A stretch of DNA of 64,000 nucleotides from NCBI RefSeq assembly GCF_905475395.1, contig NC_058337.1:113454368-113518367 (forward strand). The letters run 5' to 3'. Positions within the stretch are counted from its first letter, which is position 1, and each line of letters begins with the position of its first letter. The notes under the pieces are model-generated. The model saw only the letters and a program-made list of their open reading frames with translations, searched no databases and was not told the origin of the DNA. A program made the translations under genes and the position numbers. This stretch comes from Chrysoperla carnea. Taxonomy: Eukaryota; Arthropoda; Insecta; Neuroptera; Chrysopidae. Of the stretch, positions 15,094-64,000 are shown in pieces.

Positions 15094-18000
15094 ATGAGGC
15101 CACGCTCAGTACCTGCGCCGCCAATCAACTGTATAACCAATGAACCGATGTTATATAAGGAGCCCAGCATCATGGAATCAATGTATATACCGAACAATCC
15201 ACAGTACGGTTTACAACTTGAGTACACCACAACCGGACAGTATCCCGTTTATCATACCACAACAAATTTTAATGGTCCCGATGATGATCCGATCCAATTT
15301 AATGGATATAGCGTGAATTCACCAGTGCAAATATGTGTAAACAATGATAATCCAGAGAATCCACATTTCGAGGAAGTAACAAATGTGTTATGTGATGAAA
15401 ATAATTGTATTGTAGATGTTAGTGATTTACGGCACCATCAATTACATCATACTGAATGCGGTTGTCCGAATGATAGTGTAGATAATTTATGCAGTGAACA
15501 TCATCATCAACATGATCAGCAAAATATCGATGATGATTTGTGCCATCAAAATAATAGTGATTTAGAATTGTGTGCAAGTGTACAAGGGATTTCAAGTAGT
15601 GCGGGAATTTGTGCGAATACACAAATTTATTCGGGTAGTTTAAATAATAGTGTAGCACAACAATTATCAACGTCGTCGTCGGCAGCACCGTATTGGGCAA
15701 CGGATGTTGATATGGGAACATTTTCGTTGCCCCCATTGGACTTGGATCCGTTACCAAGTTTGTTCCCGTTTTCACCCTGTTCAGCGAATAATTTTAAGTA
15801 AGTTTACTTTATTCCATAAATTTGCATTATTATAATCCCGTAGCATTGAAATTGTTTTCACAAAATTGGAAATGTATAAAAGATTATTGTTTTGTCAGAC
15901 ACGTCTAAAGAAAAGGAAAAACACGTTTTAAGGTATTTCCAGCATGAATGCACTTGTCGGCAGATTACTTTTCGCCTATTTTTTTTCACAGAATGTTTGG
16001 TCGTTTTGATTTCGAGATAATCAGCTGCAAAGTTCAAGATTTCCCAATTCAAAGTATGTAAAACTCACTGCCCTCCCAGCTATTTTTTACGATATTCAAA
16101 AATTTTCTCGATAGAATTGAAAAAAAAAGTTGAAAGGAATGTTGTCAGAATAAAATAATAAAAATAATCTCGTGTTTTAAACGGTTAAAATTTCTGAAAC
16201 TTTGGGATTTAATAGTAAGCCCTATTAACTTCTTAAAAATTTCTTGATAAATTCTGTCGAAAATAAATTTTACCAAAAACCATGCTGGAAATTCCTTAAA
16301 TCTAGAAGATGAAATGTTGAAATGTTCCTTTTCAAAACAAAACTTGTCTTATACCTTTCGTTGTTATTTAAAGTAATTTTTATTTTTTCAAATCGAGAAA
16401 TATAAACCTTTTGTAGTTTAAAAAATTTGATCGATTTTCTGCTTAAGTTAAATTATAAAAAAGTTTTAAAGGTACCGATTTTTATTTGATGTCAATTCTA
16501 GATTTTTTTTATTAAACAAAATAGGAGCTTTTTATACGATAATAATAACGAGGCTTCATTTTTTGGAAATTTTCCTAAATTAATCCTGAATTTATTATTG
16601 CTTAGGAACGTTTGGATCGACCCGATCGATAAAATTTCACCAGATTTCTAGAGTTTTGTACGTGTCTTTATTAAGACGTATGTGGAACATATTTTATTTG
16701 TAAAAATTTACGAAAAGCAAATTTTGTTTATGAGATCCGAATAATTTAAAGCAACACTAAAGCAAGCTATATATAGATCAGCATCCGGTTTTTTTTGTAA
16801 TTGTAATAAAATGATATTAGAATTTCTTATTCAAACCTTCTATACGTGAAAGGAAACGCCAATAAATTCAAGAATTTTCCTGAAGATATACTAAGTTCTA
16901 AAGTAGAAATATTTTAACAAAAATATTGGAATTACGCGATATACTTGGTTGCAAAGAATACAAATACATACTGTATTCTTTGCTGGTTGTGTGAGGCTGG
17001 ATGAAATCTATGAGTTATTTTCTTTTGGTACGTAAAAAGAGTTTTATAATCGAATCGTGAAAACCGTAGCAACAGTTATTCTGATTGTAAAATTGTAAAC
17101 TAAATATTTTATGTCGATTGTTTCTCCATAATATGTACTTAGATCATATTAACGACCAGAAAAATATTTCACTAAATACTTGGAAATATACAACATATTA
17201 AATACTACCTGAATCAATTTGTTAAAAAATGTACAAGGAATAATGTGTTGATCTAAATTAAGATAAAGGCATTATGATAATTAAACCCCGTAGCTTGTAA
17301 ACCATCAACCATTAAAGTTATAGGTATTTTTAAGTTTTGAGTCCGCGGGGTATTAAATGGCTTTTTAATTCAAGATTATAAGCAACAATCTAATATTTCT
17401 ATTTTATATGTAAGTTTATTTTCGACGAGTTAAATCTACGAAAATTCTTATACGTGGTATCTCTTCTTTCACACGGTTCGGAAAATTTTTCATCGCACGC
17501 AAAAACTTCACTTTGGCGAGTATCCGGTTATTTTGTTACAAGGAGTAAAAATAAAGGATTTTCAAACGCTATATTACTTCCATTTGATATACTAACAATG
17601 GGAAAAATTTATTGGCAAGTGCAGCAGGTCCTCACGGGACGTGATATCCTGGATTCCTCTCACGGAAAATTCCTAAAAATGAAAAATAATTTCTGTATAA
17701 ATTGGCCATAAATTTATTTAAGGACATGCATAAATATTATTATTAGTGTCTTTTGTAGTATAAGATCATTTTATTTTGTATACCTAGAATTATAAATGTA
17801 TTGTAGTATTTAAAATTATTGTTTGCTAGATCAGAATGTATTAATGGTGGAGGTCCAACAGGAACAACAGGATCAAATCTATTACATCATCATCATCATC
17901 ATGGTAGTGGTATTGTAAAACAGCCACATGATATGGCTGATGTATTACTATCATTAAAACACGCAGTCGTACATCCAGGACAACAATCAGCAACATCACC

Positions 18001-20707
18001 ACAAGGCGGTGGCAGTATAGGGAATGGTGGAGGCGGTGCACCATTAAGTCCACCCAATTTTACAACTACTGCCGCCTATCCACAACAATCACAATTATCA
18101 TATTCAATGCACCCACATCAGGTATACATATACGTATATGTGGAATTGATTATATTGTGAATATATTAAGTATACTAGCAGATACCCGATCGCTTTGCTG
18201 GACAATTTCTCCTTCAAAAACAAAGACTATCACGTTATAGCCCTCACTAATCTCTCCTTTTGTTCACAATTTTATGGATTTTAATTTTTCGGTGGGAAAC
18301 TCTAATTTTTTTTTTTTAAAATGAAGTTTTGCTCATGATTCTCGGCGACATAGTAACTTTTTATAGGTCCAATCATAAAATTAACATGATTTTTACACTT
18401 TTTGGAGTAAAATTACCCCATCCATTGACATTCATAAAATTCCATTTTTTTTTTCAATTTTCTCGATTTTATCAAGGGGTAAAAAAAATTCTTTAAAAAA
18501 AATTGCAAAAACCGATAAATTTTTTTTATTTCAAATTTTGATAAAACTCAGTATATAAGGTAATTTTGACCCAAAAAGTACAAAAATCGGGTGCATTTGA
18601 TGACTGGTCGGATAGTTTTTGAGATACGGACTAAAATCGATCCAAATATTGCGAAATCTCAGAAACTCTGCATCCAATCATTAAATTAACCTGATTTTTA
18701 TACTTTTTGGATCAAAATTACCCCATCCACCGAGTTTCATTAAATTCCAAAACACAAATTTTTTTGCGTTTTTCTGTTTTTCTTAATTTTTTCAAAGGGG
18801 TAAATTAAAATTACCCCTTAAAAAAATTGCAAAAAATCGAGAAATTTTTTATCGCCAATTTCGATAAAACTCAGTATATAAGGTGTTTTGACCCAAAAAG
18901 TACAAAAATCGGGTGCATTTGATGAGTGGTCGAATAGTTTTTGAGATACGGACTGAAATCGATCCAAATATTGCAATATCTCAGAAACTTTGCATTCAAT
19001 CATTTTTGTTAAGCTGATTTGTATACTTTTTGGATCAAAATGATTCTACTTAATAAAGACTAATTATGCCTGTTGCACAACTGTTTCTAATTAATTTTCA
19101 AATTTAGATGCTGATGTCACCAACAGCATACCCAACCAGCTTTTGTGATCAAAGCGGAATGTTTGGTCCAACGAATGGCAACTGTCAAGGACATCAACAA
19201 TCTGGAATGTTTCCCAGCATGAGTGTCAATGTCTCAATGAACATGACAATGCATGGATATCCACCACCGTATCCAGAGACCATACAACATCAAGTCACTT
19301 GCCCACAAGTAAAATAATTCACTAACTCTAAGTCACAAATAATGTATCTAAAATTTTGTAATTCCTTTATACAGATGCAATGGAGTACATCACCACAAAA
19401 TACATCCCCTACAATGTATCATCAACAAGCACAAGGCATATTAAGTCCTAGTTATACTAGTGGGGGTACAACGTATTCCTTTACCGCAGATTTCCGTACA
19501 CCGTCTGGAGGCGGTACTGGAATTGGTGATAATCCGTTGATAACAACAAGTTCCTCATTTAAACCAGTATTAAATAAAAATAGTAGTACATTTTCACAAT
19601 TAGCGGCTGGACTGCGATCACGTAGACAAAGTTTAGGTTATAGTTCATTATCGCCAACAACGAATTCAGTGATTGGTGGACCAACAAAAATTCATACGGG
19701 TGCACTTAGTTCAGAGGATGAATCACAACGACCGAATTTATGCCGTATTTGTGGTAAGTAATTTTTTGCATTTATGCCAAAATCATTCATTTGTTTGGGA
19801 ATTTCCTAATTGCTTCCTAGGAACAAGTATGTTAGGATTTTATTTTACTATATGTAAAGAGGATTATATTTGACTTAATTTTTTTTTATTGCAAATACGT
19901 CAAAAGTGATTAAAAATGATTTTATAGAAAATTATGATATCTACATTTTTTATTCAAAAATTTTTACAAAGCGAACTTATATTCAAAAATACTTCCACTT
20001 CGATGGTAGTTTAAATCTTCATTTTATTGGACTATAATAGCAGACTTGAACACTAGTTTATGCTGATTTTATCCTCAAAAGGAGATCTTTGGCTATAACG
20101 AAGCATGAGAATAGTTTAAGTATCAAGATTCTTCAAATTATCATTCTAGTTTCTTCAAATTATTCAGACCGAAATTTTATGATGCATTAAGATAATAAAT
20201 TCCTGAATTTTAAACACAAAAACTAATTGGCTGAATTGTTTTTTTTTTCTAGGTAAAACATACGCCCGCCCAAGTACATTAAAAACTCATTTACGTACAC
20301 ATTCCGGTGAAAAACCGTATCGATGTAGTGATTGCAATAAAAGTTTTTCACAAGCAGCAAACTTAACAGCACACGTACGTACACATTCTGGTGAAAAACC
20401 ATTCCGTTGTCCAATTTGTGATCGTCGTTTTTCACAATCCAGTTCCGTAACGACACACATGCGTACACACAGCGGGGAGCGACCATATCGATGTCGTATG
20501 TGTAAAAAAGCATTTAGTGATAGTTCAACATTAACAAAACATTTACGAATTCATTCGGGCGAAAAACCATATCAATGTAAATTATGTCTGTTACGGTTTT
20601 CACAATCGGGTAATTTAAATCGTCATATGCGAGTCCATGGTACAACTAATAATGGTGCGGGACCAACAAATAGTCATCACCATCAGATGTTAGGTACAGC
20701 TGGATGA
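15094..20707 (+). CDS. gl: Glass, C2H2 zinc-finger transcription factor (five exons)
   Basis: Glass is a DNA-binding regulator needed for photoreceptor differentiation in insects and acts in the nucleus. Coding exons are 15094-15797, 17830-18121, 19108-19308, 19375-19753 and 20253-20707; all junctions are GT-AG and the phases join exactly, giving 676 aa. Residues 522-654 form five C2H2 fingers (Cys pairs at 522/525, 550/553, 578/581, 606/609, 634/637) with HSGEKP-type linkers; the match to fly Glass here is near-identical from memory. N-terminal blocks also match: [10 protein letters not shown], the acidic-hydrophobic [43 protein letters not shown] and YSFTADFR. The last intron splits finger 1 between its Cys pair and the rest. 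An in-frame TGA at 15085-15087 bounds the start, but Met19 (15148) and Met27/30 are alternatives, and a 5' untranslated exon was not located. Exon 2 carries a six-His run of CAT codons. The gene ends at a TGA with an open extension behind it. Confidence 0.95.
18371..19045. repeat. Tandem array with alternating inverted arms in glass intron 2
   Basis: Two full units (18371-18675 and 18676-18997, about 305 and 322 bp) and a short third start (18998 on) are arranged head to tail. Each unit begins AATCATWAAATTAAC-like and holds a forward arm (near 18386, 18691 and 19012, core TACTTTTTGGATCAAAA) and the reverse complement of that arm (18559-18592 and 18882-18914, core TTTTGACCCAAAAAGTA). The array fills most of the 986-base intron 18122-19107 and could fold in the pre-mRNA. 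Confidence 0.85.
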
Positions 20708-20836
20708 CATCATCCATATTCTTTGAGTACAGCGGCTGCAGCTGCGGCCGCGATGTCCTCCCATCATTATCATCATCATCATCACCATCACCATCCGACT
20801 GCAAGTGCAAACAGACATTTGGCCTTTTATTTGTAA
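20708..20836 (+). CDS. gl: Candidate readthrough extension of Glass
   Basis: Directly after the glass TGA (20705-20707) the same frame stays open for 42 codons and ends at TAA 20834-20836. The predicted tail has seven consecutive Ala, then a His-rich stretch (ten His in twelve residues) and ends in NRHLAFYL. The Ala run uses mixed codons (GCG, GCT, GCA, GCC) and the His run mixes CAT and CAC, which suggests selection on protein rather than simple triplet slippage. The stop context is TGA followed by C, the leakiest tetranucleotide class in insects. I recall a readthrough isoform being discussed for fly glass but cannot check it. The alternatives are a recent premature stop, a sequencing error, or chance. 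Confidence 0.55.
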   Translation, partial: HHPYSLSTAAAAAAAMSSHHYHHHHHHHHPTASANRHLAFYL

Positions 20837-20854
20837 TAGAAAATTTGAATCGCG

Positions 20855-20860
20855 AATAAA
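20855..20860 (+). terminator. Possible glass polyadenylation signal
   Basis: AATAAA lies 18 bases after the second stop (TAA 20834-20836) and about 150 bases after the first. A second AATAAA is at 21064-21069. Either could serve the glass transcript; no cleavage-site evidence is visible. Confidence 0.3.
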
Positions 20861-23800
20861 AAAGGGTAAACGTTTTGTACTCTGTAATACATACGAATCA
20901 CGGGAGAATATTATTATGTTTGAGTCTCGCTCGGTAGAATACAATTCACGGGAGAATTTGAGTCTATACCCAGATTGCCGATGTTGACAAATTTTAATAG
21001 TATAAAAGTCCGAGAACGGATCGCAAAATCACTTGACTCATCGGTAACCGGATCAAACTGTGTAATAAAGCGGCAATCAAAGCTATGGCAGTAGCTGCGA
21101 AGAGATAATTTTTATTGGAAAAAATTTTAAAGATGGCAAATGAAACATCTGTGACGACACTAAACGAACCACACGAGAAATACCACTCTCAAAAGGGCCT
21201 TTAGAATTCGAATATCCTCTATAAGAGATATTTTTGTCAACTAATAATTAATTATATGACAAAGTTTTTGACTAGAAAAAAATGGTGGATTTGGGTATAA
21301 GTCTGTCTAATAGCACAAAGTAGACTTGGTTTTTTCTTGTTGCTACAGTCAGCTCAGATTTTATGGCGCCGTTGCATGTTACTTATTCGTTGCTTCGTTT
21401 CGTCACCTAAAGTGCTGCTATTTGTATTAGAAACTTTCGGAAAAATCTACAGATGCTCAAAGGATCAATTGACATTGATCCCTTGACTTAATTCAGAGAA
21501 ATTCAAACGTTAATTGACAAAATTTGGAAAAAGAGTAGATAAATAAGTGCAAAAGAATGATAGTAAGAATTTTTCTGTGTATAAATGGAATTTTGATAGG
21601 AACATAACTGAAAGCCACCTTCTTAACAAAATTGAGATTTTTTTCTTTGTATGATAGGTAAAATTCTCCCGTAACTACCCAGAGTTCTGGATTTATACAA
21701 ATATTTCAAAATTTTAAGGACTGTGTTTTATAAAAAAAATTAAAATAATTAGGGTAAATTTTTTTAAAACGATGATTCAAATTTGTGTGATAATTAATAA
21801 TAGTTTATGTAAATACAATATTTTTGTCGAACCAAAACAATATCTCAAAAGAGAACCAAAAATATATCTCAAAAAAATTTACAAAAAAATTGTTGTTTAT
21901 TCATTTTTTAAATGTTTAAAATTTATGAAAATATTGTTAAATAAATGTGTGAATTTTAATAATTCAAATTAATTTATCCAAAATATCCAAAAGATTTAAA
22001 TATCTGATAAATTCGTTGTAGATAGTACTTAGCAAGTTGCGACCTAAATTCGATTGAAGTTTTTGAAAAGCATTGCAGACTTTCGTAGCGTAAAATACGC
22101 AAAATTTTGCTTGGCAAATAGCGTAATTTTCTTCCATTCTATAACCTTCTATTAAATTCTGTATGTGTCGTATACTAATGGATTTCCATCTAAATATTAT
22201 ACCACGCAGAAATAACATAAAACTGTCGCTACAAATTTTGACAATAAAGAATTGATTAATCTTTTTTAAAAAAATACAGTCAGCAGATCCAAAGTACTTT
22301 ACATTTAGATAAATTGATTTGAATAATTTAATAAAAAAACAACTTTTAAGTAAATTATAAAATAATAACGGCCATATTCGTCTTTAAACGATACTAAGTG
22401 TTTTTCAAAGTTAAAACTATGTAAAAACACTTTTGAATCAAATGAATTTTGTGTAACATTTTGAAAAACACAAAACATCTAGTCATTTTCTTTTTGTATA
22501 AAAATTGATTAAATAAAATAATAAATAATAAAAAAAACTTGCTGGAATAATTTTTAATCTTTGCATTTCAAACTTTACATAAACAAAACGATGTAAAATT
22601 AAAATTATTTTCAATAATAGATTTTGAATTTGTACCTTTCCTACCTTTCTGGATCCATAAAAAATTTTTACTTAAAAAGTTCTGCATAAAAATAACTTTC
22701 CATAATTTCCTTGTTGAATTTTAATGAATTTTTCATTTATTGCTCCTTTTTCATGCTAATTCATTCAGGATAAATAAAAAATTGTTAGTTCATTTTTTTA
22801 AAAATTAATAAAATAAACTTTTATCACAATTTATTTATTTCTGATTAAATAAGTACCTACTTATTTTATCAAAGTACTTAAAATTTCTAAATTTTTGTTC
22901 TATTTGTTATTAGAAATAGGCAGAATTTTTCAAAGAGTTAACAATCCGAATGCATACAGGATTCTTCTGTGTACATAATCATAGTAAAAATTTTAATTCC
23001 CCTGTAAATTTTATATTTTTGTTATTTGTGTGCTAAACTTTTTATAGATCTGAAGTACAAGTTGCCTATAATAAAAAAAATATAAAATAGAACTACCGAT
23101 CAAAAAATTTTAAAAAGTTGTTTCTAGGCCGTTTTCTCGTTTATCTGAATTAGCAGATTTTCTCGCAGACCGTATAAACTAAAAAGAATATATGCTCTAT
23201 ATTTTTCGAAAGTGTTATTTAGAATTTAAAAGTTGAAAACACGTCAATAAGTAGATATGCATTATTTAAAATTCTTTAAAAATTTATCTTTAATTAATTT
23301 TTCTCGGAGACTAAGAAAACAGATATAAATTAATGGTAAATAAACCATTGAAATACTTTTATAAAATTTAGGGAAATTAATTTTATAAAATTACTAACAT
23401 AGAAATTCAAATACTTCTTACCAATGCTAATTCAATTTTAACAGACATATTGTTAAAAATCATCATTTTTGAACCTCTTTAAAAAACCGTATTGAAATCG
23501 ATCCATGTGTTTGGAAGCTCCGAGCCATGATACCAAACATAGTCACGACGATTCTTTAATCTTGTAACACTTATCTCTGTTGGCCCAGACTAACGGCTTC
23601 AATGAACTTTTAGGTACGACTTTTAAATTTACTTAATTAAAGCTTTAATATTTTCAAAAATTTATTCAAAATATTTTTCGCTTGCTATTCAAAATTCCTT
23701 TCCAAATAAACCACAAACCGACTATCGACTGTTATAAGATTAGATTAATCCACAAAAGTACTACCTATTTTATTAATTTCTATTTTTGAAATTAGCAGCA

Positions 23801-24164
23801 TAAACTGGCTAAAATAGCGAAATAACGATAAAAAACTGGGCTTAAACCCTACCATGATAAAGTTTTCCTGAATGATTTCATTGAGAATTCTTGTAAATAT
23901 AGCTACGGATTCTAGAACATAAGATATAGGTACTGTTGATAAGCCACTCAAAATACTTGAAATTGATAATTTTGAAAAAAAATTCAATCCTCAATCACTT
24001 CATAGAGACACAATATTGTTATTTTATTAATTAAAATGGATTTAGCAAATAAGTATTGTGGAATTAATTAATCAAGAACTTGTGTGGTCTAATTAAATGC
24101 AATTTTTTAAATTTTTGAAATAATTCATTTAATTTAGTGTTTGATTGAAAAATATTGCCGAAAA
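20861..24164. other. Intergenic region between glass and transporter A
   Basis: AT-rich DNA with no supported gene or strong repeat. The TTTAG at 24133-24137 just before the transporter A start could be the acceptor of a 5' untranslated exon. Confidence 0.5.
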
Positions 24165-26270
24165 ATGGCAGAATCATTAAATCCTATGTTACCCACTGTA
24201 AACAGTGGGTCATCGTATAATCCAACAACTGTTTCGAAAGCAACCAGAGGACCGCAATATTTAGGTGCAATTATAGGTAAATATTTAGTAAATTTTTCTA
24301 TCAAAATTACAAAAATCAAAAATTATTTTAAATATTGAAAAAGCAATTTTTTGGCAGTAAAAATTCATAAACATTGGAGATAAAAATGTGCCCAATATTT
24401 TAGAGACAAACCTTAATTTATAATAAAACGGAATTCTTAGCTTAAAACAAGAAATCAGTAAAATTTCTCTCTTTACTTATGAACAATGTACTCAAATGAG
24501 ACGAATTTCATCTCAAATCGTGGATTAAAAGAAAATATCATTTGCTTAATTTTCATTATTGAATTTTTCTTCATGATTTTCTGTTTGAGTTTATGGTATT
24601 TTTGGGCTCACGGCAATGTATTTCTCATTTTGCTCGAAGGATTCTTACTTTCGACACTTAACTTATCTGTCTAGGAGAAAATAGGGTTTGCACCGATCTG
24701 GTCTTGGATACTTGAATAACCAACAGGATTTTTAAAATTGCGTGCCACATAACAATATTTTTTTTAAATTTCTAATTTATTGTTTAATCGAATAACCTTC
24801 ATTTGTGGACCCAAAAAATATTTTGGCATTGAAAATTTAGATAAAAAACTTTTAATTAAAAAATTATCTTTTTGATTAAAAATTAAGACGTAATTATACC
24901 CTTTTCAAACGTAATTGTTTTTGTTTTTAGTGTGTTTGGCAGCAGTTTCAGCTGGTACGGCCATAGGATGGAGTGCTCCAGTAATACCCCAACTAGAAAA
25001 TGGAACAACAGCCCCATTTCCTGTAACAAAATCAGAAAGTTCATGGATTGGTGCATTTTTACCAGTAGGTGCCTTATTTGGTGCTATTCCTGGTGGAATT
25101 TTGGCTGATAAAGTTGGACGAAAATTGACAATCTTATCATTAGCTGGACCATTTTTAATAAATTGGGGTTTAATTGTTATAGCAAATTCTGCAACTCTTA
25201 TGATTGTTGGACGATTTTTTGCCGGATTATCAACGGGAGCGATATGTGTAACAGGTTCTATGTACATTGGAGAGTTTGCTGAAACTGAAATACGTGGAGT
25301 TTTGGGATCCTACTTTCAATTGTTTTTATGTGTGGGAATTTTAATATCATTCGTTTTGGGAGCGTTTTTGGATTATGTCCAATTATCTTTAACACTAGCT
25401 GTAATTCCAATTATTTTTGTTATAACTTTTAAATTCATGCCAGAATCTCCGGTATATTTGATGACAATTGGTAAGCGAACAGAAGCTGAAGACGCTATTC
25501 GATGGTTTCGTGGTAAAAATTATAATGTCACACCAGTTATTGAGGAAATACAACATACAATTGACGCCACAGCTGGTAAAGAATCCTCAGTTGCGGATTT
25601 ATTTAAAACTAGAGGTAATTTGCGAGCATTTATTTCCAGTTTAGGATTGATGTTATTCCAACAATTCTCTGGAATAAACGCAGTTATCTTCTACACAGTC
25701 ACAATTTTTGAATTAGCTGGAAGTTCATTAAATCCGAAAGTGGCTGCTATTTTAATTGGAAGCATTCAAGTAGTTATGGCTTACATCGCTGCAACAATAA
25801 TTGATAAAGCTGGTCGAAAAATATTTTTATCTCTTAGTGGTGGAATTATGTTTATTTGTTTAGGTGGAATTGGATTTTTCTTCCAGCAAAAGGAATCGGA
25901 TGTGGATGTCTCAAATATTGGATGGTTACCACTCAGTTGTCTATTACTGTATATTGTAGGATTTTGTTTGGGTTATGGGCCTATACCATGGATGATTATG
26001 GGTGAATTATTTACGCCTGAATTGAAAGGTGTTGCAAGTGGTATTGCCGTATTAACTAATTGGTTTTTAACTTTTGTGGTCACAAAATCGTTTGATGGAA
26101 TGGTAGCAGCGTTTGGTATCAGTGGAACTTTCTTCACGTTTATGGCGTTTGTGTTTGCTGGTTTGGTGTTTGTACAAGTTGTTTTGCCGGAAACTAGAGG
26201 AAAATCATTGCAAGAAATACAAGATGAGTTAAATGGACGGAAGCATATACGTAAATCGGCTAATATTTAA
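24165..26270 (+). CDS. Transporter A: Tret1-like facilitated trehalose/sugar transporter
   Basis: This is a sugar-porter family MFS protein of 483 aa, expected in the plasma membrane with 12 helices. Tret1-type members move trehalose down its gradient from fat body or into tissues; the substrate here is inferred. Exons are 24165-24276 and 24931-26270, with a phase-1 GT-AG intron (donor GTAAAT, acceptor TTTTTAG). An in-frame TAG at 24135-24137 precedes the ATG. Signature motifs in order are DKVGRK (97-102), PESPVYL (208-214), QQFSGINAV (281-289, helix 7, substrate-contact Asn kept), DKAGRK (329-334), GPIPW (387-391) and PETRGKS (457-463). Length is typical of the family. The cytosolic N-terminus is short (about 37 residues) and Ser/Thr/Pro-rich. 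It is 3.3 kb downstream of glass, same strand, and converges with transporter B, a close paralogue. Confidence 0.93.
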
Positions 26271-34497: not shown

Positions 34498-36493
34498 TTA
34501 AAATTTCTTAAAATTAATTTTCCGTAAATCTTTTTGTATTTGTTGCATAGATTTCCCACGAGTTTCTGGTACACAAAATACAATAAACACTATTCCTAAG
34601 CTCAAAAATGCTGCAAATATGTAAAAAGTTGCGGCTGGTCCAATTGAAAATACTAGAGGTCCAAATGATTTAGTTACAATGAATACTAAAGCCCAATTTA
34701 GTGTAACAGTAATGCCACTTGCAATGCCCCGTAATTCAGGGGAATATATTTCGGACATTAACATCCACGGTAATGGTCCTAAGCCAACAGCGTATCCCAC
34801 AATAAAAAACATTAAGCTGAATAGAGGCAACCAACTGATGTAAGTCGTACTTCGACCGCCTAATTTCCATTGGAAATAGAAACCTAATAAGATCATACAA
34901 ACAGCCATAATGATGCCACTGATCATTAAGAAAAACTTTCGTCCAGCCCGTTCAATAACTGACGAACAAACTACTGCCATAATTACTTGGACGAGTGCGA
35001 CCAATATGGATTGTACATGTTCGTCAATCGAAGTGTTTGCAGCTTGAAAAATTTGAACAGTATACGATTTGATTGCGCTTACACCACTTAACTGTTGGAT
35101 GCACATCAAACCAATACATGCAATTAATCCATAAATATTTTCCCTTGTTTGGAATAAATCCATAAACTTTGCCGTACGGCCAAATCTAGCCTCGATCATT
35201 ACTTGCATCTGTGATAATTCTTTTTCGATATCATGATTTCGTGGTCGTAGCCACCGTAATGCGTCCGAAGCTGCAGTTAAACGATTATTCTTTATTAAAT
35301 ACACTGGAGATTCTGGTAAGAAATTAAATCCGATGCCAAAACAAATTGGAAATATGGCTAGAATTAATGATAGAATTTTATAGTGGACCAATGCTCCAAT
35401 TGAGTAAGTTATTAAGATTCCAATACATAAAAATAATTGAAAAAATGATCCATATGTTCCACGATTCTTAATTTCGGACATTTCTATTAAATACATGGAA
35501 CCACAAACGCAAATGGCACCAGTAGAAATTCCAGCCAAAAATCGTGCCACATACAACATGTAAACATTCACAGCAAAAACAATTAGAATCCAATTTATTA
35601 AAAATGGAATTGTTGTTCCAATCAAAATGAATTTACGACCAAATTTCTCAACTAAAATTCCCGCAGGAACTGCACTACATAAGGCTCCAATTGCTAGTAA
35701 CGATCCAATCCAAGTTGCTTCTGCGACTGTTACATGTATTGTAGAGCTTTTAGCGGTGAGTTGCGGTAGTACGGGTGATGTCCATGACAGTACACTTCCA
35801 GCAGATAAAGCTCCAAAACTAACTGCAACAAAAAACAAGTGAAAACAAACAATTGACTGCGATTCTTCCGAAGCATCTCAATTTCTTACAAATGTTGGAA
35901 ATTTTTAACATTCTAACGAAAAATCAAAAATTTCATTTTTTTATTTGCCATTCTTCATCATTTTAAAGGATGGAATGGGATCACAAGTCTTGGATTAAAG
36001 AATCGTAACTTATCAATAACGTAACAGTAAAAATCCTAACAGCCCAGGTGGATAAAGCATATCCAATTGCGTACTGAGCCTCAGAGGCCATGAAGTAGGT
36101 GTACTCAGCCTCTCAAAATAATGTAAAAACTGGTAAATGAGTAATTGTATCGGTAAATCCGGATTTGATAGAGCTATATACTTTTAAGGAGCACCCTATA
36201 TACTTTTTAGTTACGTATTATTGTGATTATCTTTTATCAGTATAAAATTTTTTCATTGATAATTCGTGTTTCTTTACAAAAATTTATAACCTCAAAAATT
36301 GGTAACGCCCAAAAAAGCCTAAATATTTTTTATATCCCAACGAATTAAAATTAATAATATCTATTAACTAGACGTTTTGCTTTTATATTTGAAACTTACC
36401 AACAACTGCTGCAAAACATTGTTGCCAATGCAACTTAGCTACTTTTGGTTGCCTACTTGAGGCCGGGAACATTGGATCCAATGTATCTGCCAT
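34498..36493 (-). CDS. Transporter B: divergent Tret1-like sugar transporter
   Basis: This is a second sugar-porter MFS gene, 472 aa, on the minus strand. Exon 1 is 36493-36400 (31 codons plus one base, donor GTAAGT) and exon 2 is 35822-34498 (acceptor TTGCAG); the phase-1 junction restores Val32. Motifs are EKFGRK (90-95), PESPVYL (201-207), QQLSGVSAIKSY (274-285), ERAGRK, GPLPW and PETRGKS. Helix 7 is unusual: the family's QQxSGxN Asn is Ser, and the following aromatic pair is replaced with Lys-Ser-Tyr, where transporters A and C keep Asn. Otherwise the frame is intact and conserved, so it looks functional rather than a pseudogene. A 25-bp piece of a dispersed repeat abuts its splice acceptor. 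It converges with transporter A and shares its gene structure, implying duplication with inversion. Confidence 0.92.
35835..35859 (+). repeat. 25-bp terminal fragment of dispersed repeat family 1
   Basis: These 25 bases match the outer end of the family-1 element exactly as in the copy starting at 3761 (core GTGAAAACAAACAATTGACTG), then similarity stops. On the minus strand it lies 10 to 34 bases upstream of the acceptor AG of transporter B exon 2 and supplies its T-rich tract. Confidence 0.7.
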
Positions 36494-60100: not shown

Positions 60101-63100
60101 CGGGCTAGAGAGGTCTTAAAAAAAGAACTGACGCAAATGAGTTCACTTCCTCTCCACTGTGACAACGTCTGCATGAATTGTGAAGCACTATTAGGCCCAG
60201 TCGTTAAACGTGTCTGTCTGCTAGCCAGTGTCTTGTAACAGCCGCAACGATTCTGCTTACCGACTTTTTTTTATTACGAATGCATTCTTGTATTTTTGGC
60301 AATTATTTGGTAAGTACCATGGAATGATATCGTGAGTATTGGGCAAAGCTTGGGTTTGTCACTCAGAAGCATCGCGTAGAAACCAAAAAGAATTTTATTA
60401 TTTCTGAGTAACTTTTTTTTTATTTTTTCTGAGTAACAAGGAGTAATTCTCTCACATGTCATGGTACTAGGATAATAACAAAAATCCATTAAAAATCAAA
60501 GCCTTAGACAAAAATTTTATCGAAACAAAAACTAAGCATAATTAAGCGCAAATTGTTTTATTATATAATAATGTAGCTTAGCAAAGTTTGAATTGAATAT
60601 AAACATATGACGTAGATTTTAAATTTACCATAACTAAAATAAATATTTATGCAATTGTTATATAAAAATAATAAATTGATTATGATTAGTTAAATGAAAT
60701 TCAAAATATTTCCACAGGTGATTCCTTCAAAAAATATTCTAAATTGTTCTTATTTGTTCTCTAATTATTTATAAAGCCAACTTAATGAATACCAAAACAT
60801 ACACGCTTACACACTTTATTATATTTATCTTCGAATCTAAATTATTTCTAATCGAAGTGGTATGAGTACCTACTTAAGCATTCTCCCATATTTTGGTAGA
60901 AAAAATGTCAGATAAACTAGACATATTTATCATTATTCGCAACTATTAGAATCTATAGTGGACACTGTTATGGCGGTTGAAGAGGGTACATGAATCTCCT
61001 GGGATAAACAAACAAAAAACTATAGAACATAAGTAAGTCAATTCGTAGAAATTCACTTTTAATGTCATTTAATTATATAGAATCTAGGATAATGTGTACA
61101 CCTCTTCATTTCATATTTAAATCTCAATAATTTCACTAAAATATCTCTTATGATAGAATAACCCATATTCACTATTCTGTTAGCTTGTAAAAAAAATTCT
61201 AATTTTTGCAAGCAATAGAATTAACTTAATTAATTCCAAATTTTAATTACTTAATCAATTAAAAATTGCAAAATTTTGATATCAATTAAAAAAATTATTA
61301 ACTTAAAATTATTGAAAATGACAAGGTAGAACGATGCTAAAGGCAAATTTTTTGTTAAAATAATCCATAAAACACTACACCATTTCCTTATTCTGTTAAT
61401 AATTTACATGCAAATTCGCATGGCTATATATAAATTTCTGAATGGCTATTGAACGGAGCCGAACCTGTAAGGTAAAAAATAATTTAGTCAAATATACCAA
61501 AAATGATTGTTGTTTTTTCTTATAATAAATTTTATTCCAAATTTAAATACATTTTTTCATTCTCTATAGAACGATTTAAATCTACCCAACTCAGCTGATC
61601 ACTGCACTTTTACCAGGGGATGTAGCTCAGTGGTAGAGCGTTCGCTTTGCATGTGAAAGGCCCGGGGTTCGATCCCCCGCATCTCCATTTTTTTTGTTTT
61701 ATTTTTACACACAGCGCACCACTTATAATAAATAAGGAGGAAATATAAGTTTAGTGATTAAGGAAATAACTTACTCTGAGTTATTTCTGAGCAGACCGCC
61801 GTTCAGAAGTTATTTCCTTTGATGCTTACTAAGTTAATGCAAAAAGATTTTTTACGAAGAATAATTTTCAAGAGCATCTGCCTTGAATCGCCAACCACAC
61901 TACTAGGTACTGATTAATAAAAATAAAATAAAATCGCCTTTTTAATAGAAAGTTATCCGATTTAAGACTGACGAAGGTCATGTTCATGATTAATTAATGG
62001 TAAACTTAATGAGGAATGCACTACTTGTTTGATAATTGTACGTAAATAAAATTGGAAACAAAACTAGTTTTCATTCGGAAAAATTTATGGGAGGTTTTTC
62101 ATTTATTCAAGGTGTATTTTCTTTTTTTTTTTTTTTTTTTTTTAAAAGAAACATCATTAATTATTTTTATTATATATTCTTCAATGAAATCATTCTCATT
62201 TACTTGCTATAAATTTTCGTAGGAGTGTCGGCTTTAAGGTTGTTCCCAGAATCTGTTAAAACTCAGCGAAATAAGGCCATAAGTAAGAGTAAAAGATTTT
62301 CAATTCTAGTTTTTAAGATATTGACGTCTGGAAATCAAAATGATGATTTTAAGTACTTCGGCCGTTACGTGACTAATCAACAAGTTAATTAGGCAATTTG
62401 TATAACCCAAAATAGTCGACTTTGTTGAATACCTTTATCTTTTCGATGTTTAAGATTAAAATTCTTTTGATTATACAAATTTTAAAATCTCCCTCAGTAG
62501 TAAAATTTTTTTAAATAAGTGTATTCGTTAAATCTTTAACGATATTTATTTATCTCATGTGAAAATTTGCATAAAATCAAAAAACTTTAATAACAAATTT
62601 CAAAATCATCAAATTCAACTACAATGCAGGAGTTGGTACAAAATTGTTATAAAAGTTGCCTATCTTTAAAGATTGTTCTCCTAAATATTGTATATAAAAA
62701 AATTGAAACCTTTTGAAATGCAAAAGTTTGTTATTTCAATTAGTAATTTTCCAATTCTTATTTTCAAAATTATGTACAGTTATAAACAATCAAAGATCAT
62801 CAGTAAAAATTATAATAACATTGAGACTTTATTTATTTCTAGGTAATTTGATTGCCTTTAGTGCTGGCTGTGTTTTAACATGGACATCACCTTGTCTACC
62901 AAAATTATACGATAATTGGGAAACGGACAGTCCTTTAGATCGACAAATTACACTAACAGAAAAATCATGGATATCATCTTTATTAGCATTAGCTGCTGCG
63001 TTTGGTCCAATTATTGCTGGATATTTAGCTGATCGTATTGGACGAAAAATTGTATTATTGGGTGCAGCTATACCATTTATTGTTGGCTGGGTTTTAATGG

Positions 63101-64000
63101 CAACTACAACGACAGTTGCACAAATTTTAATTGCACGATTTCTTTGGGGTTTATCCGTTGGTGCAGTGTTTACAGTTTTACCCATGTACATTGGTGAAAT
63201 TGCAGATGTAAGTTTCTACCGTTCTTTGTTATTTATTTTAAAACATTACTTTTGACATGGGCTTATACAAGTTCGCTATAACTAGCGAGAATTGTTTTAT
63301 GTCAATAGCACTTTTATGCCAGTTGAGAGTCTCATTGCCCGTCTTACTGCTATTGTTTTTAAAATTTAAGCTTGCTTATGGCTACCATATTGACTACTTG
63401 ACGTCATTAGTGATTTGCCCAAAAAGAAATTTTGATTTTGATAGATTTTTATTTTTTACAGGACGATGTTCGTGGAGCATTAGGATCATTTATGCAATTG
63501 TTCATCACGTTTGGAATTTTATGGGCGTATGCTGTTGGTGCATATACTTCCTTTAAAGTATTCTCCTATTTATCGGTTGCAATTCCAATCGCTTTTTGTG
63601 TATTCTTTTTCTTTATGCCTGAATCACCGTATTATCTATTAGGCAAAGATAAACGCAACGAGGCTACCGAAGCATTAATGTTTTTACGAAGTAAATCAAA
63701 TGATGGAGTTCAAAAAGAACTTGAACAAATGAAATGTAATGTAGATGAGACGAAAAAACAATCTGGAACAATTAAAGATTTATTTGCCACGGCTAGCTCT
63801 AAAAAAGCTTTGATTTTATCATGTGGATTAGTTGGTTTCCAACAATTTTCTGGTATAAACGCTGTGTTATTCTTCTGTGGAACCATTTTTAAGGAATCTG
63901 GAAGTACAGTTGATCCTGATATTAATGCCATTATTATTGGATGCGTACAAATCGGTTCAAGTGCAGTTACACCATTGGTTGTAGACCGGTTAGGACGTAG
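48187..64000 (+). CDS. Transporter C: Tret1-like sugar transporter, 3' end beyond the window
   Basis: This third sugar-porter MFS gene is cut by the window end. Exons are 48187-48388, 62843-63207 and 63462 to at least 64000, giving 368 complete codons of a probable ~500. Exon 1 encodes a polar 67-residue N-terminus (MAERNGQRPYDYELV..., Gly/Asn-rich) ending KARQYIAAGT; its phase-1 donor (G/GTGAGT) joins the acceptor TTTCTAG at 62842 to give GNLIAFSAG, the usual run into helix 1. Motifs are DRIGRK (131-136), PESPYYL (242-248), QQFSGINAV (316-324) and DRLGR at the cut edge. Intron 2 (63208-63461, phase 0) falls after EIAD and before DDVRG and is absent from A and B. An in-frame TGA at 48151-48153 precedes the ATG, which sits in a good context (GCCGATGG). 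Pairing across 14.45 kb rests on phase and sequence fit; another, unseen first exon is possible. Confidence 0.87.
49075..49410. repeat. Foldback repeat family 2, copy in transporter C intron 1
   Basis: Left arm 49136-49230 (CATCGTAGTTCCTCAACGGA to TTTTAGCTATGTTTCGAG) and right arm about 49288-49362 (GTTGAAACATAACTAAAAAT to GGATCTATGATGCAAC) are imperfect inverse complements. Confidence 0.65.
50797..50958 (+). repeat. GGTTAGG-headed GC-rich dispersed repeat, copy 1
   Basis: It starts GAGGTTAGGTTAGAACGGCT, continues with ACACACTTAGACCATAGGGT and ends with a GAACAGCAAGAG block. It is clearly GC-richer than its surroundings. The short TTAGG repeat at the head resembles the insect telomere unit, but only two copies are present. 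Confidence 0.7.
53760..53813 (+). other. tRNA-like 3' half
   Basis: GTCGCCGGTTCAAATCCGAC resembles a T arm with B box (four of five stem pairs) and is followed by TCGGGGA like an acceptor 3' strand. No matching 5' half (TCCCCGA) lies upstream, so this is a fragment or SINE remnant. Confidence 0.4.
54638..55217 (-). repeat. Dispersed repeat family 1, copy in transporter C intron 1
   Basis: Well-preserved reverse copy of about 580 bp. Its GTCTGTCCGTCTGTCCGTC block and the outer TTTGTTTTCGCTTGT end are clear. An imperfect palindrome of TATGTATGTGTAACATG type lies near 55100-55135. Confidence 0.85.
56816..57060. repeat. Dispersed repeat family 3, copy 2
   Basis: It carries CGACCTTCACCCATCTGATA, ATCGAAAAGTATTCATGGC and CTCTGATACCAATTTTGATT. 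Relative to 41097-41345 one half is inverted and the other direct, as expected for a foldback unit or an inversion. Confidence 0.45.
58312..58366 (+). other. Weak tRNA-like relic
   Basis: GTGGCTAATAAAACGCTCGC followed by CCGCTAAACGAG and GGTGCAAATCT has the order A box, anticodon stem (CTCG/CGAG) and B box, each imperfect. Acceptor pairing is lost. Confidence 0.3.
59948..60255 (+). repeat. GGTTAGG-headed GC-rich dispersed repeat, copy 2
   Basis: 59948-60105 aligns with 50797-50958 throughout (CTGCCCTGGGGTGGAACACA, GGCCACTGCTCTA, AAGAACAGCAAGAG). The GC-rich stretch continues to about 60255 without a partner in this window, so this copy may be longer. Confidence 0.7.
61616..61687 (+). tRNA. 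tRNA-Ala (anticodon TGC)
   Basis: The 72 bases, including the discriminator A, fold into a complete cloverleaf. Acceptor GGGGATG pairs with CATCTCC and includes the G3:U70 wobble that identifies alanine tRNA. The D arm is GCTCAGTGGTAGAGC, the anticodon stem TTCGC/GTGAA (one G-U) has loop TTTGCAT with anticodon TGC at 61648-61650, and the T arm is CGGGG-TTCGATC-CCCCG. A TTTTTT run (61689 on) follows as RNA polymerase III terminator. There is no intron. It lies inside intron 1 of transporter C on the same strand. Confidence 0.97.
61688..61694 (+). terminator. RNA polymerase III terminator of tRNA-Ala
   Basis: A T run begins immediately after the discriminator base of the tRNA gene, the normal stop signal for polymerase III. 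Confidence 0.8.
62122..62143. repeat. (T)22 homopolymer
   Basis: A 22-base T run in intron 1 of transporter C, about 430 bases after the tRNA gene. It could be the reverse-oriented tail of a retroposed sequence, but no body is recognisable beside it. Confidence 0.7.

What the first reader, a model, noticed from the sequence alone, without database searches (positions are those of the whole stretch)
20705..20836. Glass stop codon followed by a 42-codon in-frame, low-complexity extension
Directly seen: the frame stays open after TGA for 42 codons, with Ala7 and a His-rich block encoded by mixed synonymous codons, ending at TAA. TGA-C is the leakiest stop context known in insects. Many insect regulatory genes make C-terminally extended forms by readthrough, and I recall (unverified) such an isoform for fly glass. 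The inference is that two Glass proteins (676 and 719 aa) are made here.
Basis: partly seen in the sequence, partly recalled or inferred. Interest (0 to 1): 0.75.

Follow-up and report, generated by a model that had tools for sequence, protein, structure and literature searches.

The report
Possible longer Glass protein in lacewing
In a green lacewing, the eye-development gene glass ends at a leaky type of stop signal followed in frame by 42 more codons that look like protein, so ribosomes may make some of a longer Glass, as predicted before for flies; direct proof is missing.

Summary
The window is Chrysoperla carnea chromosome 1. glass ends at TGA-C (20705-20708); the frame stays open for 42 codons to TAA, with TAG right behind. 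The open frame alone is weak evidence: 59 of 1075 TGAC sites in 200 kb of this genome do as well, and three other frames are open too. The stronger evidence is content. A codon score trained on lacewing homeobox genes gives +16.5 bits in frame and -27 and -21 in the other forward frames. Only 3 of 1354 open background segments reach that; coding windows average +17.8. The signal is amino-acid composition (Ala7, His block), not synonymous codon choice. Among 28 homeobox ORF ends the only other strongly positive tail was that of vvl/drifter, a proven fly readthrough gene; Abd-B, another, scored negative. Fly Glass has a published readthrough form (PC, 679 aa, UGAC, His-rich middle, dispensable for the eye), described as not conserved outside higher Diptera. 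Most likely a readthrough isoform: a new member of a known kind, unproven. No insect relatives, footprints or peptides could be examined. Main rivals: chance low-complexity 3'UTR, recent nonsense mutation.

The parts
15094..15797 (+). glass exon (first coding exon in the model; start codon uncertain)
   Evidence: In-frame model ending at a GTAAGT donor; motifs MYIPNNP and [18 protein letters not shown]; their likeness to fly Glass is recalled
17830..18121 (+). glass coding exon, holds a (CAT)6 His6 run
19108..19308 (+). glass coding exon with [15 protein letters not shown]; a fly glass exon 4 primer in PMC6655844 encodes MNMTMH in one frame (my translation)
19375..19753 (+). glass coding exon into the first zinc finger
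20253..20704 (+). last coding exon: C2H2 zinc fingers, then 21 residues after HMRVHG; no intron in the last finger
   Evidence: 5 zf-C2H2 stretches
20705..20707 (+). first stop TGA, next base C (UGA-C)
20708..20833 (+). 42-codon in-frame extension, proposed readthrough tail
20732..20752 (+). Ala7, GCG GCT GCA GCT GCG GCC GCG; the RNA can form an 8-bp hairpin (20732-20739 with 20744-20751)
20762..20794 (+). His block HHYHHHHHHHH
20834..20839 (+). tandem stops TAA TAG ending the extension
20855..20860 (+). AATAAA, possible polyadenylation signal after the second stop (16 AATAAA or ATTAAA in 20601-23000, so it may be chance)

Best explanation
glass of Chrysoperla carnea ends at a leaky UGA-C. A fraction of ribosomes probably insert an amino acid there (a near-cognate tRNA) and go on for 42 codons to tandem stops TAA-TAG, making a Glass of about 719 residues next to the 676-residue form. 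The added tail (Ala7, then a His block) is probably a disordered, transcription-factor-like segment that would modify Glass after its zinc fingers, for example its regulatory activity or its place in the nucleus. Shown: the sequence, the context, and in-frame coding-like content. Inferred: that readthrough happens, at what rate, and that the tail does anything. In flies the comparable tail is dispensable for the eye.
For: Codon score frame 0 +16.5 versus -27.3 and -20.9 in the other forward frames; 3 of 1354 background open segments reach it; 69 coding windows average 17.8 and 26 TF tails 16.3. 0 of 1920 open dinucleotide shuffles reach it; by GC of the background segment 0 of 31 (0.45-0.6), 1 of 72 (0.40-0.45), 2 of 244 (0.35-0.40), 0 of 933 below. 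7 of 1069 overlapping 3'-flank windows reach it, all 7 in L033 where they run into a neighbouring homeobox gene. 0 Ala runs of 4 or more in 200 kb background against 3 in 3431 training codons. Of 28 homeobox ORF ends, 1 has 42 or more open codons in frame (L036, score -31.5) and 2 have TGAC. Positive control: the only other strongly positive in-frame extension among the 28 is L045 (22 codons, +11.5; next L026 +3.2), with C-terminus HQLAAH and TAG-C; fly vvl/dfr has the same C-terminus (my translation of its primers) and UAG-C and is a proven readthrough gene. Fly Glass PC: UGAC, His-rich middle of variable length. UGA-C is described as a leaky context.
Against: Synonymous codon choice alone gives -4.8 (null -6.2, sd 5.7; coding +7.3, sd 5.4), and 586 of 1354 background segments do as well: no signal. 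The 24 codons outside the Ala and His runs score 2.0; 53 of 1354 background segments reach that, and coding averages 10.2. One other forward and two reverse frames are open too. The lacewing Abd-B-like gene, whose fly counterpart is a readthrough gene, scores -5.4 after its TGA-C, so the test misses or its tail is not coding. [quoted passage not shown] No comparative or translation data.
Confidence: 0.64

Rival explanations
1. The stretch is ordinary 3'UTR: a GC-rich GCN repeat and an impure CAT repeat keep the frame open by chance and look like Ala and His when read.
For: An open run of 42 codons after TGAC is 5.5% by chance; three other frames open; synonymous choice not coding-like; a pure (CAT)n microsatellite exists in the background (L013).
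Against: Score reached by 3 of 1354 background segments and 0 of 1920 shuffles; no Ala run of 4 or more in 200 kb background; the non-repeat codons also lean coding (53 of 1354).
Confidence: 0.2
2. The longer protein was the normal Glass and the TGA is recent: a nonsense mutation, a heterozygous allele or a base error.
For: Low-complexity His-containing sequence lies on both sides of the stop ([12 protein letters not shown] then HHPYSL), so the tail could be one old C-terminus.
Against: PacBio assembly at 40-fold with 147-fold 10X reads makes a base error unlikely; fly Glass also stops with UGAC, 37 residues after the first His of its last finger (His 567 of 604).
Confidence: 0.1
3. Alternative splicing removes the TGA and joins the tail to the main frame.
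For: 73 in-frame GT..AG pairs exist (15 printed), among them 20655-20732 (78 nt), 20689-20805 (117 nt) and a 39-nt one at 20694-20732 bounded by GTACAG repeats, which spare the fingers.
Against: The best donors by consensus (6 of 8) lie in finger-coding sequence or at the exon start; those that spare the fingers match 5 of 8 with at most 9 of 15 pyrimidines at the acceptor, or 11 of 15 for a 39-nt piece; 39 nt is below usual intron size (general knowledge). RNA was not seen.
Confidence: 0.04
4. UGA is recoded as selenocysteine or edited to UGG.
For: The stop is UGA.
Against: The 3 Rfam matches up to E 10 in 19000-24000 include no SECIS family; G 5' of the A is disfavoured by ADAR (general knowledge).
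Confidence: 0.02

Closest known systems
Drosophila Glass PC isoform (PMC6655844)
   Same: Same gene, stop a few dozen residues after the start of the last finger's helix, UGAC context, in-frame extension with a His-rich stretch
   Different: Fly tail 75 aa with conserved ends (within higher Diptera); lacewing tail 42 aa with Ala7. From fly primers I infer P at codon 3 and S at codon 5, as here, but codons 1-2 are unknown and no convincing alignment was possible. The fly has an intron in the last finger, the lacewing does not
vvl/drifter readthrough (PMC8417969), and its lacewing ortholog L045
   Same: Transcription factor with stop+C and a low-complexity tail; lacewing vvl keeps HQLAAH and TAG-C
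   Different: UAG; 286-aa tail and readthrough measured up to 50% in one fly tissue; only 22 codons in lacewing, not measured
Abundant insect stop codon readthrough set (Jungreis 2016, PMC5100048)
   Same: Leaky stop, frame-0 coding potential above the other frames, tails that diverge fast and score between coding and non-coding
   Different: Those were called by multi-species PhyloCSF; this is one genome

Membership tests
Insect programmed stop codon readthrough genes | Leaky stop context (UGAC is called the most frequent readthrough context) | tested here: met
   TGAC at 20705-20708; context statements
Insect programmed stop codon readthrough genes | Second ORF in frame 0 scores as coding, above frames 1 and 2 | tested here: met
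   +16.5 versus -27.3 and -20.9; driven by amino-acid composition, synonymous part like background
Insect programmed stop codon readthrough genes | Protein-coding pattern of substitutions across related species | not testable with these tools
   No insect collection offered; scans of viral contigs and genome contigs gave no Glass ortholog
Insect programmed stop codon readthrough genes | Footprints, peptides or reporter readthrough | not testable with these tools
   No such data
Insect programmed stop codon readthrough genes | Splicing, selenocysteine and editing excluded | tested here: inconclusive
   Only weak splice pairs spare the fingers, no SECIS match; RNA not examined
Glass PC of higher Diptera | UGAC at the end of Glass with in-frame extension | tested here: met
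Glass PC of higher Diptera | His-rich central part of variable length | tested here: met
   10 His in 11 codons; compare
Glass PC of higher Diptera | Conserved residues at both ends of the tail | tested here: inconclusive
   The fly sequence is known here only through primers

The most novel reading that the evidence does not exclude
Readthrough of the Glass stop is much older than higher Diptera and goes back to the common ancestor of lacewings and flies: the leaky UGA-C and the His-rich make-up were kept while the tail's sequence and length drifted, so selection acts on composition, and sequence alignment missed it outside flies.
Probability: 0.3. Interest if true: 0.6.

Novelty: new member of a known kind. 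Interest (0 to 1): 0.42.

Why it matters
If true, a conserved eye-development regulator has a readthrough isoform outside higher Diptera, where the published fly tail was called not conserved. It would make testable whether readthrough tails of transcription factors are kept for composition rather than sequence. The lacewing vvl stop suggests that single-genome scoring can find some such cases in insects without alignments.

Tried and rejected
RNA hairpin as a selected stimulator: the region folds better than dinucleotide shuffles (z -2.08; z -2.49). Keeping the peptide and permuting its own synonymous codons, 243 of 1000 fold as well (299 of 1000 with uniform codons, 67 of 1000 with CDS codon frequencies). 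The hairpin is therefore an expected by-product of GC-rich Ala codons and I do not count it as evidence.

Selenocysteine: no SECIS among 3 matches in 19000-24000.

Relatives: viral contigs gave 1 pattern match and no relative. Genome contigs gave 7 MAG contigs at 44-54% identity, read by me as general zinc-finger genes and not Glass.

Pfam on the tail: 0 families.

PF00105 and headcase PF16002 did not complete. One search translated the exon in a wrong frame and was not used.

Rows dropped: the homeobox controls are the 30 loci cut from 101 matches. They gave 28 distinct ORF ends in 27 loci; L035 repeats L033, and L050 and L051 gave no ORF of 60 aa or more by my pattern. L036 and L048 were left out of training as running into intron-like sequence (26 ORFs, 3431 codons). 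Some of the 28 ends may be intronic stops. The GC bins printed hold 1280 of the 1354 segments. Background pieces (L002-L021) are evenly spaced and contain some real exons and repeats by eye.

Full report
What is there. The window lies at 113454368-113518367 of contig C1 of a genome held as 559,487,470 bases in 337 contigs. C1 is 139,979,878 bases long, exactly the longest scaffold of Chrysoperla carnea inChrCarn1.1, which also has 337 scaffolds (PMC10116181, text part 1 of 2 read). That paper gives a span of 560,248,701 and 94.41 Mb for chromosome 3, where the held genome has 94,120,854, so the held copy may be a revised release. The species is the common green lacewing. The gene has five coding exons in the window giving 676 codons in the model I prefer, one of six in-frame models, and 5 zf-C2H2 stretches in the last exon. 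I call it Glass by its fingers and by motifs such as MNMTMH, which a fly glass primer also encodes in my translation; the wider likeness to fly Glass is recalled. The last finger is not split by an intron, as Fritsch et al. report for arthropods other than Diptera and Lepidoptera (PMC6655844: abstract, passages, section 18, and part 1 of 2 of section 24).

The observation. TGA-C at 20705-20708, 42 open codons, then TAA TAG. Length alone is weak: 59 of 1075 TGAC sites in 20 evenly spaced 10-kb pieces are followed by at least 42 open codons, and about 19% would be expected at the base composition of the stretch itself. One other forward frame and two reverse frames are open through the same stretch.

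Content test. I trained a codon log-odds score on 26 lacewing homeobox ORFs (3431 codons) against the 200 kb of background. The extension scores +16.5 bits in frame, -27.3 and -20.9 in the other forward frames, and -12.4, +0.2 (a frame with 10 stops) and -3.1 on the reverse strand. Of 1354 background segments of 42 open codons after a stop, 3 reach it (mean -16.0, sd 8.8); 69 coding windows average 17.8 and 26 tails 16.3. Of 1920 open dinucleotide shuffles (5000 made) none reaches it; by GC of the background segment 0 of 31, 1 of 72 and 2 of 244 do, and 0 of 933 below. In real 3' flanks 7 of 1069 overlapping windows reach it, all 7 in L033 and inside the next homeobox gene.

Limits of that test. 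The score is carried by amino-acid composition. Synonymous choice alone gives -4.8, like background (586 of 1354 as high) and unlike coding (+7.3). GC3 is 0.36 in the extension, 0.25 in glass and 0.21 in the training genes. The 24 codons outside the Ala and His runs score 2.0, reached by 53 of 1354 background segments, while coding averages 10.2. An intermediate value is what Jungreis et al. report for readthrough regions as a group (PMC5100048, section 13), but it is also what a weak or decaying signal would give.

Controls found on the way. Among 28 homeobox ORF ends in the same genome, 1 has 42 or more open codons in frame (L036, score -31.5), 2 have TGAC, and the median extension is 6 codons. 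The only strongly positive extension is L045, 22 codons, +11.5, a value reached by the first 22 codons of 1 of 1354 background segments. Its protein is a POU factor ending HQLAAH at TAG-C. Fly vvl/drifter ends HQLAAH by my translation of its primers and has UAG-C, with readthrough shown by mass spectrometry and antibodies and reaching 50% in the prothoracic gland (PMC8417969, abstract, passages and section 6). Against this, Abd-B, another fly readthrough gene (PMC4973966, passage), has TGA-C and 18 further codons in the lacewing (L046; named by recall of its homeodomain), but that tail scores -5.4, so it does not support the test.

Precedent. Fly Glass PC (679 aa) is predicted from conservation after the UGAC stop; it has conserved ends and a His-rich middle of variable length. 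Flies without it have normal eyes, and the sequence was called not conserved in other insects, mosquitoes included. The species list in the legend of their S5 figure has no Neuroptera. Jungreis et al. found abundant readthrough in most insects tested, but not by their definition in Tribolium or Apis, and for many fly-mosquito pairs of orthologous readthrough tails no relationship was visible. Lack of sequence match therefore does not exclude an old shared readthrough, nor does it show one.

Mechanism. Best reading: leaky UGA-C, near-cognate decoding, a minor 719-residue form with an Ala and His tail. Histidine runs are reported to place human proteins in nuclear speckles (PMC2644819, search listing with start of abstract only), so altered nuclear placement is one testable effect; this is inference. 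The predicted hairpin is explained by the peptide's own codons. Splicing, selenocysteine and editing look unlikely but RNA was not seen.

Novelty searches. In the held library, 'stop codon readthrough' with Neuroptera gave 0 papers. The rows listed for glass with readthrough (20 of 1083, 20 of 219, 5 of 5) and for insects with readthrough (15 of 117, 6 of 6) show fly work on Glass and, by title and abstract start, no lacewing case. Supplements and subscription journals were not searched.

Noticed in passing
L045:1855-1923 (+), own genome C1:66623273-66626443: Lacewing vvl/drifter ortholog ends HQLAAH, TAG-C, then 22 codons HLISWASSNASAAALLSQHDHG with the best coding score of 28 homeobox ORF ends: likely conserved readthrough of a proven fly case.
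   Followed up: partly
L046 (reverse strand), own genome C1:108987890-108991060: Abd-B-like gene (named by recall) ends at TGA-C with 18 further codons PVPFSGVMFGHHHHGLVT; fly Abd-B is a readthrough gene, but the tail scores -5.4 here.
   Followed up: partly
L026 (reverse strand), own genome C1:106819402-106822572: Scr-like Hox gene (named by recall) has TAG-G and 28 further open codons, score +3.2; weak candidate.
   Followed up: no
window 24915-26270 (+), 34498-35877 (-), 62707-63255 (+): Three sugar-transporter-like ORFs (MFS type by eye), probably a local gene family next to glass.
   Followed up: no
window 20694-20733: GTACAGC occurs on both sides of the TGA, bounding a 39-nt in-frame piece; shorter than an ordinary intron.
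   Followed up: partly
L033/L035, own genome C1:119100852-119104935: Two adjacent, very similar homeobox genes, apparently a tandem duplication.
   Followed up: no
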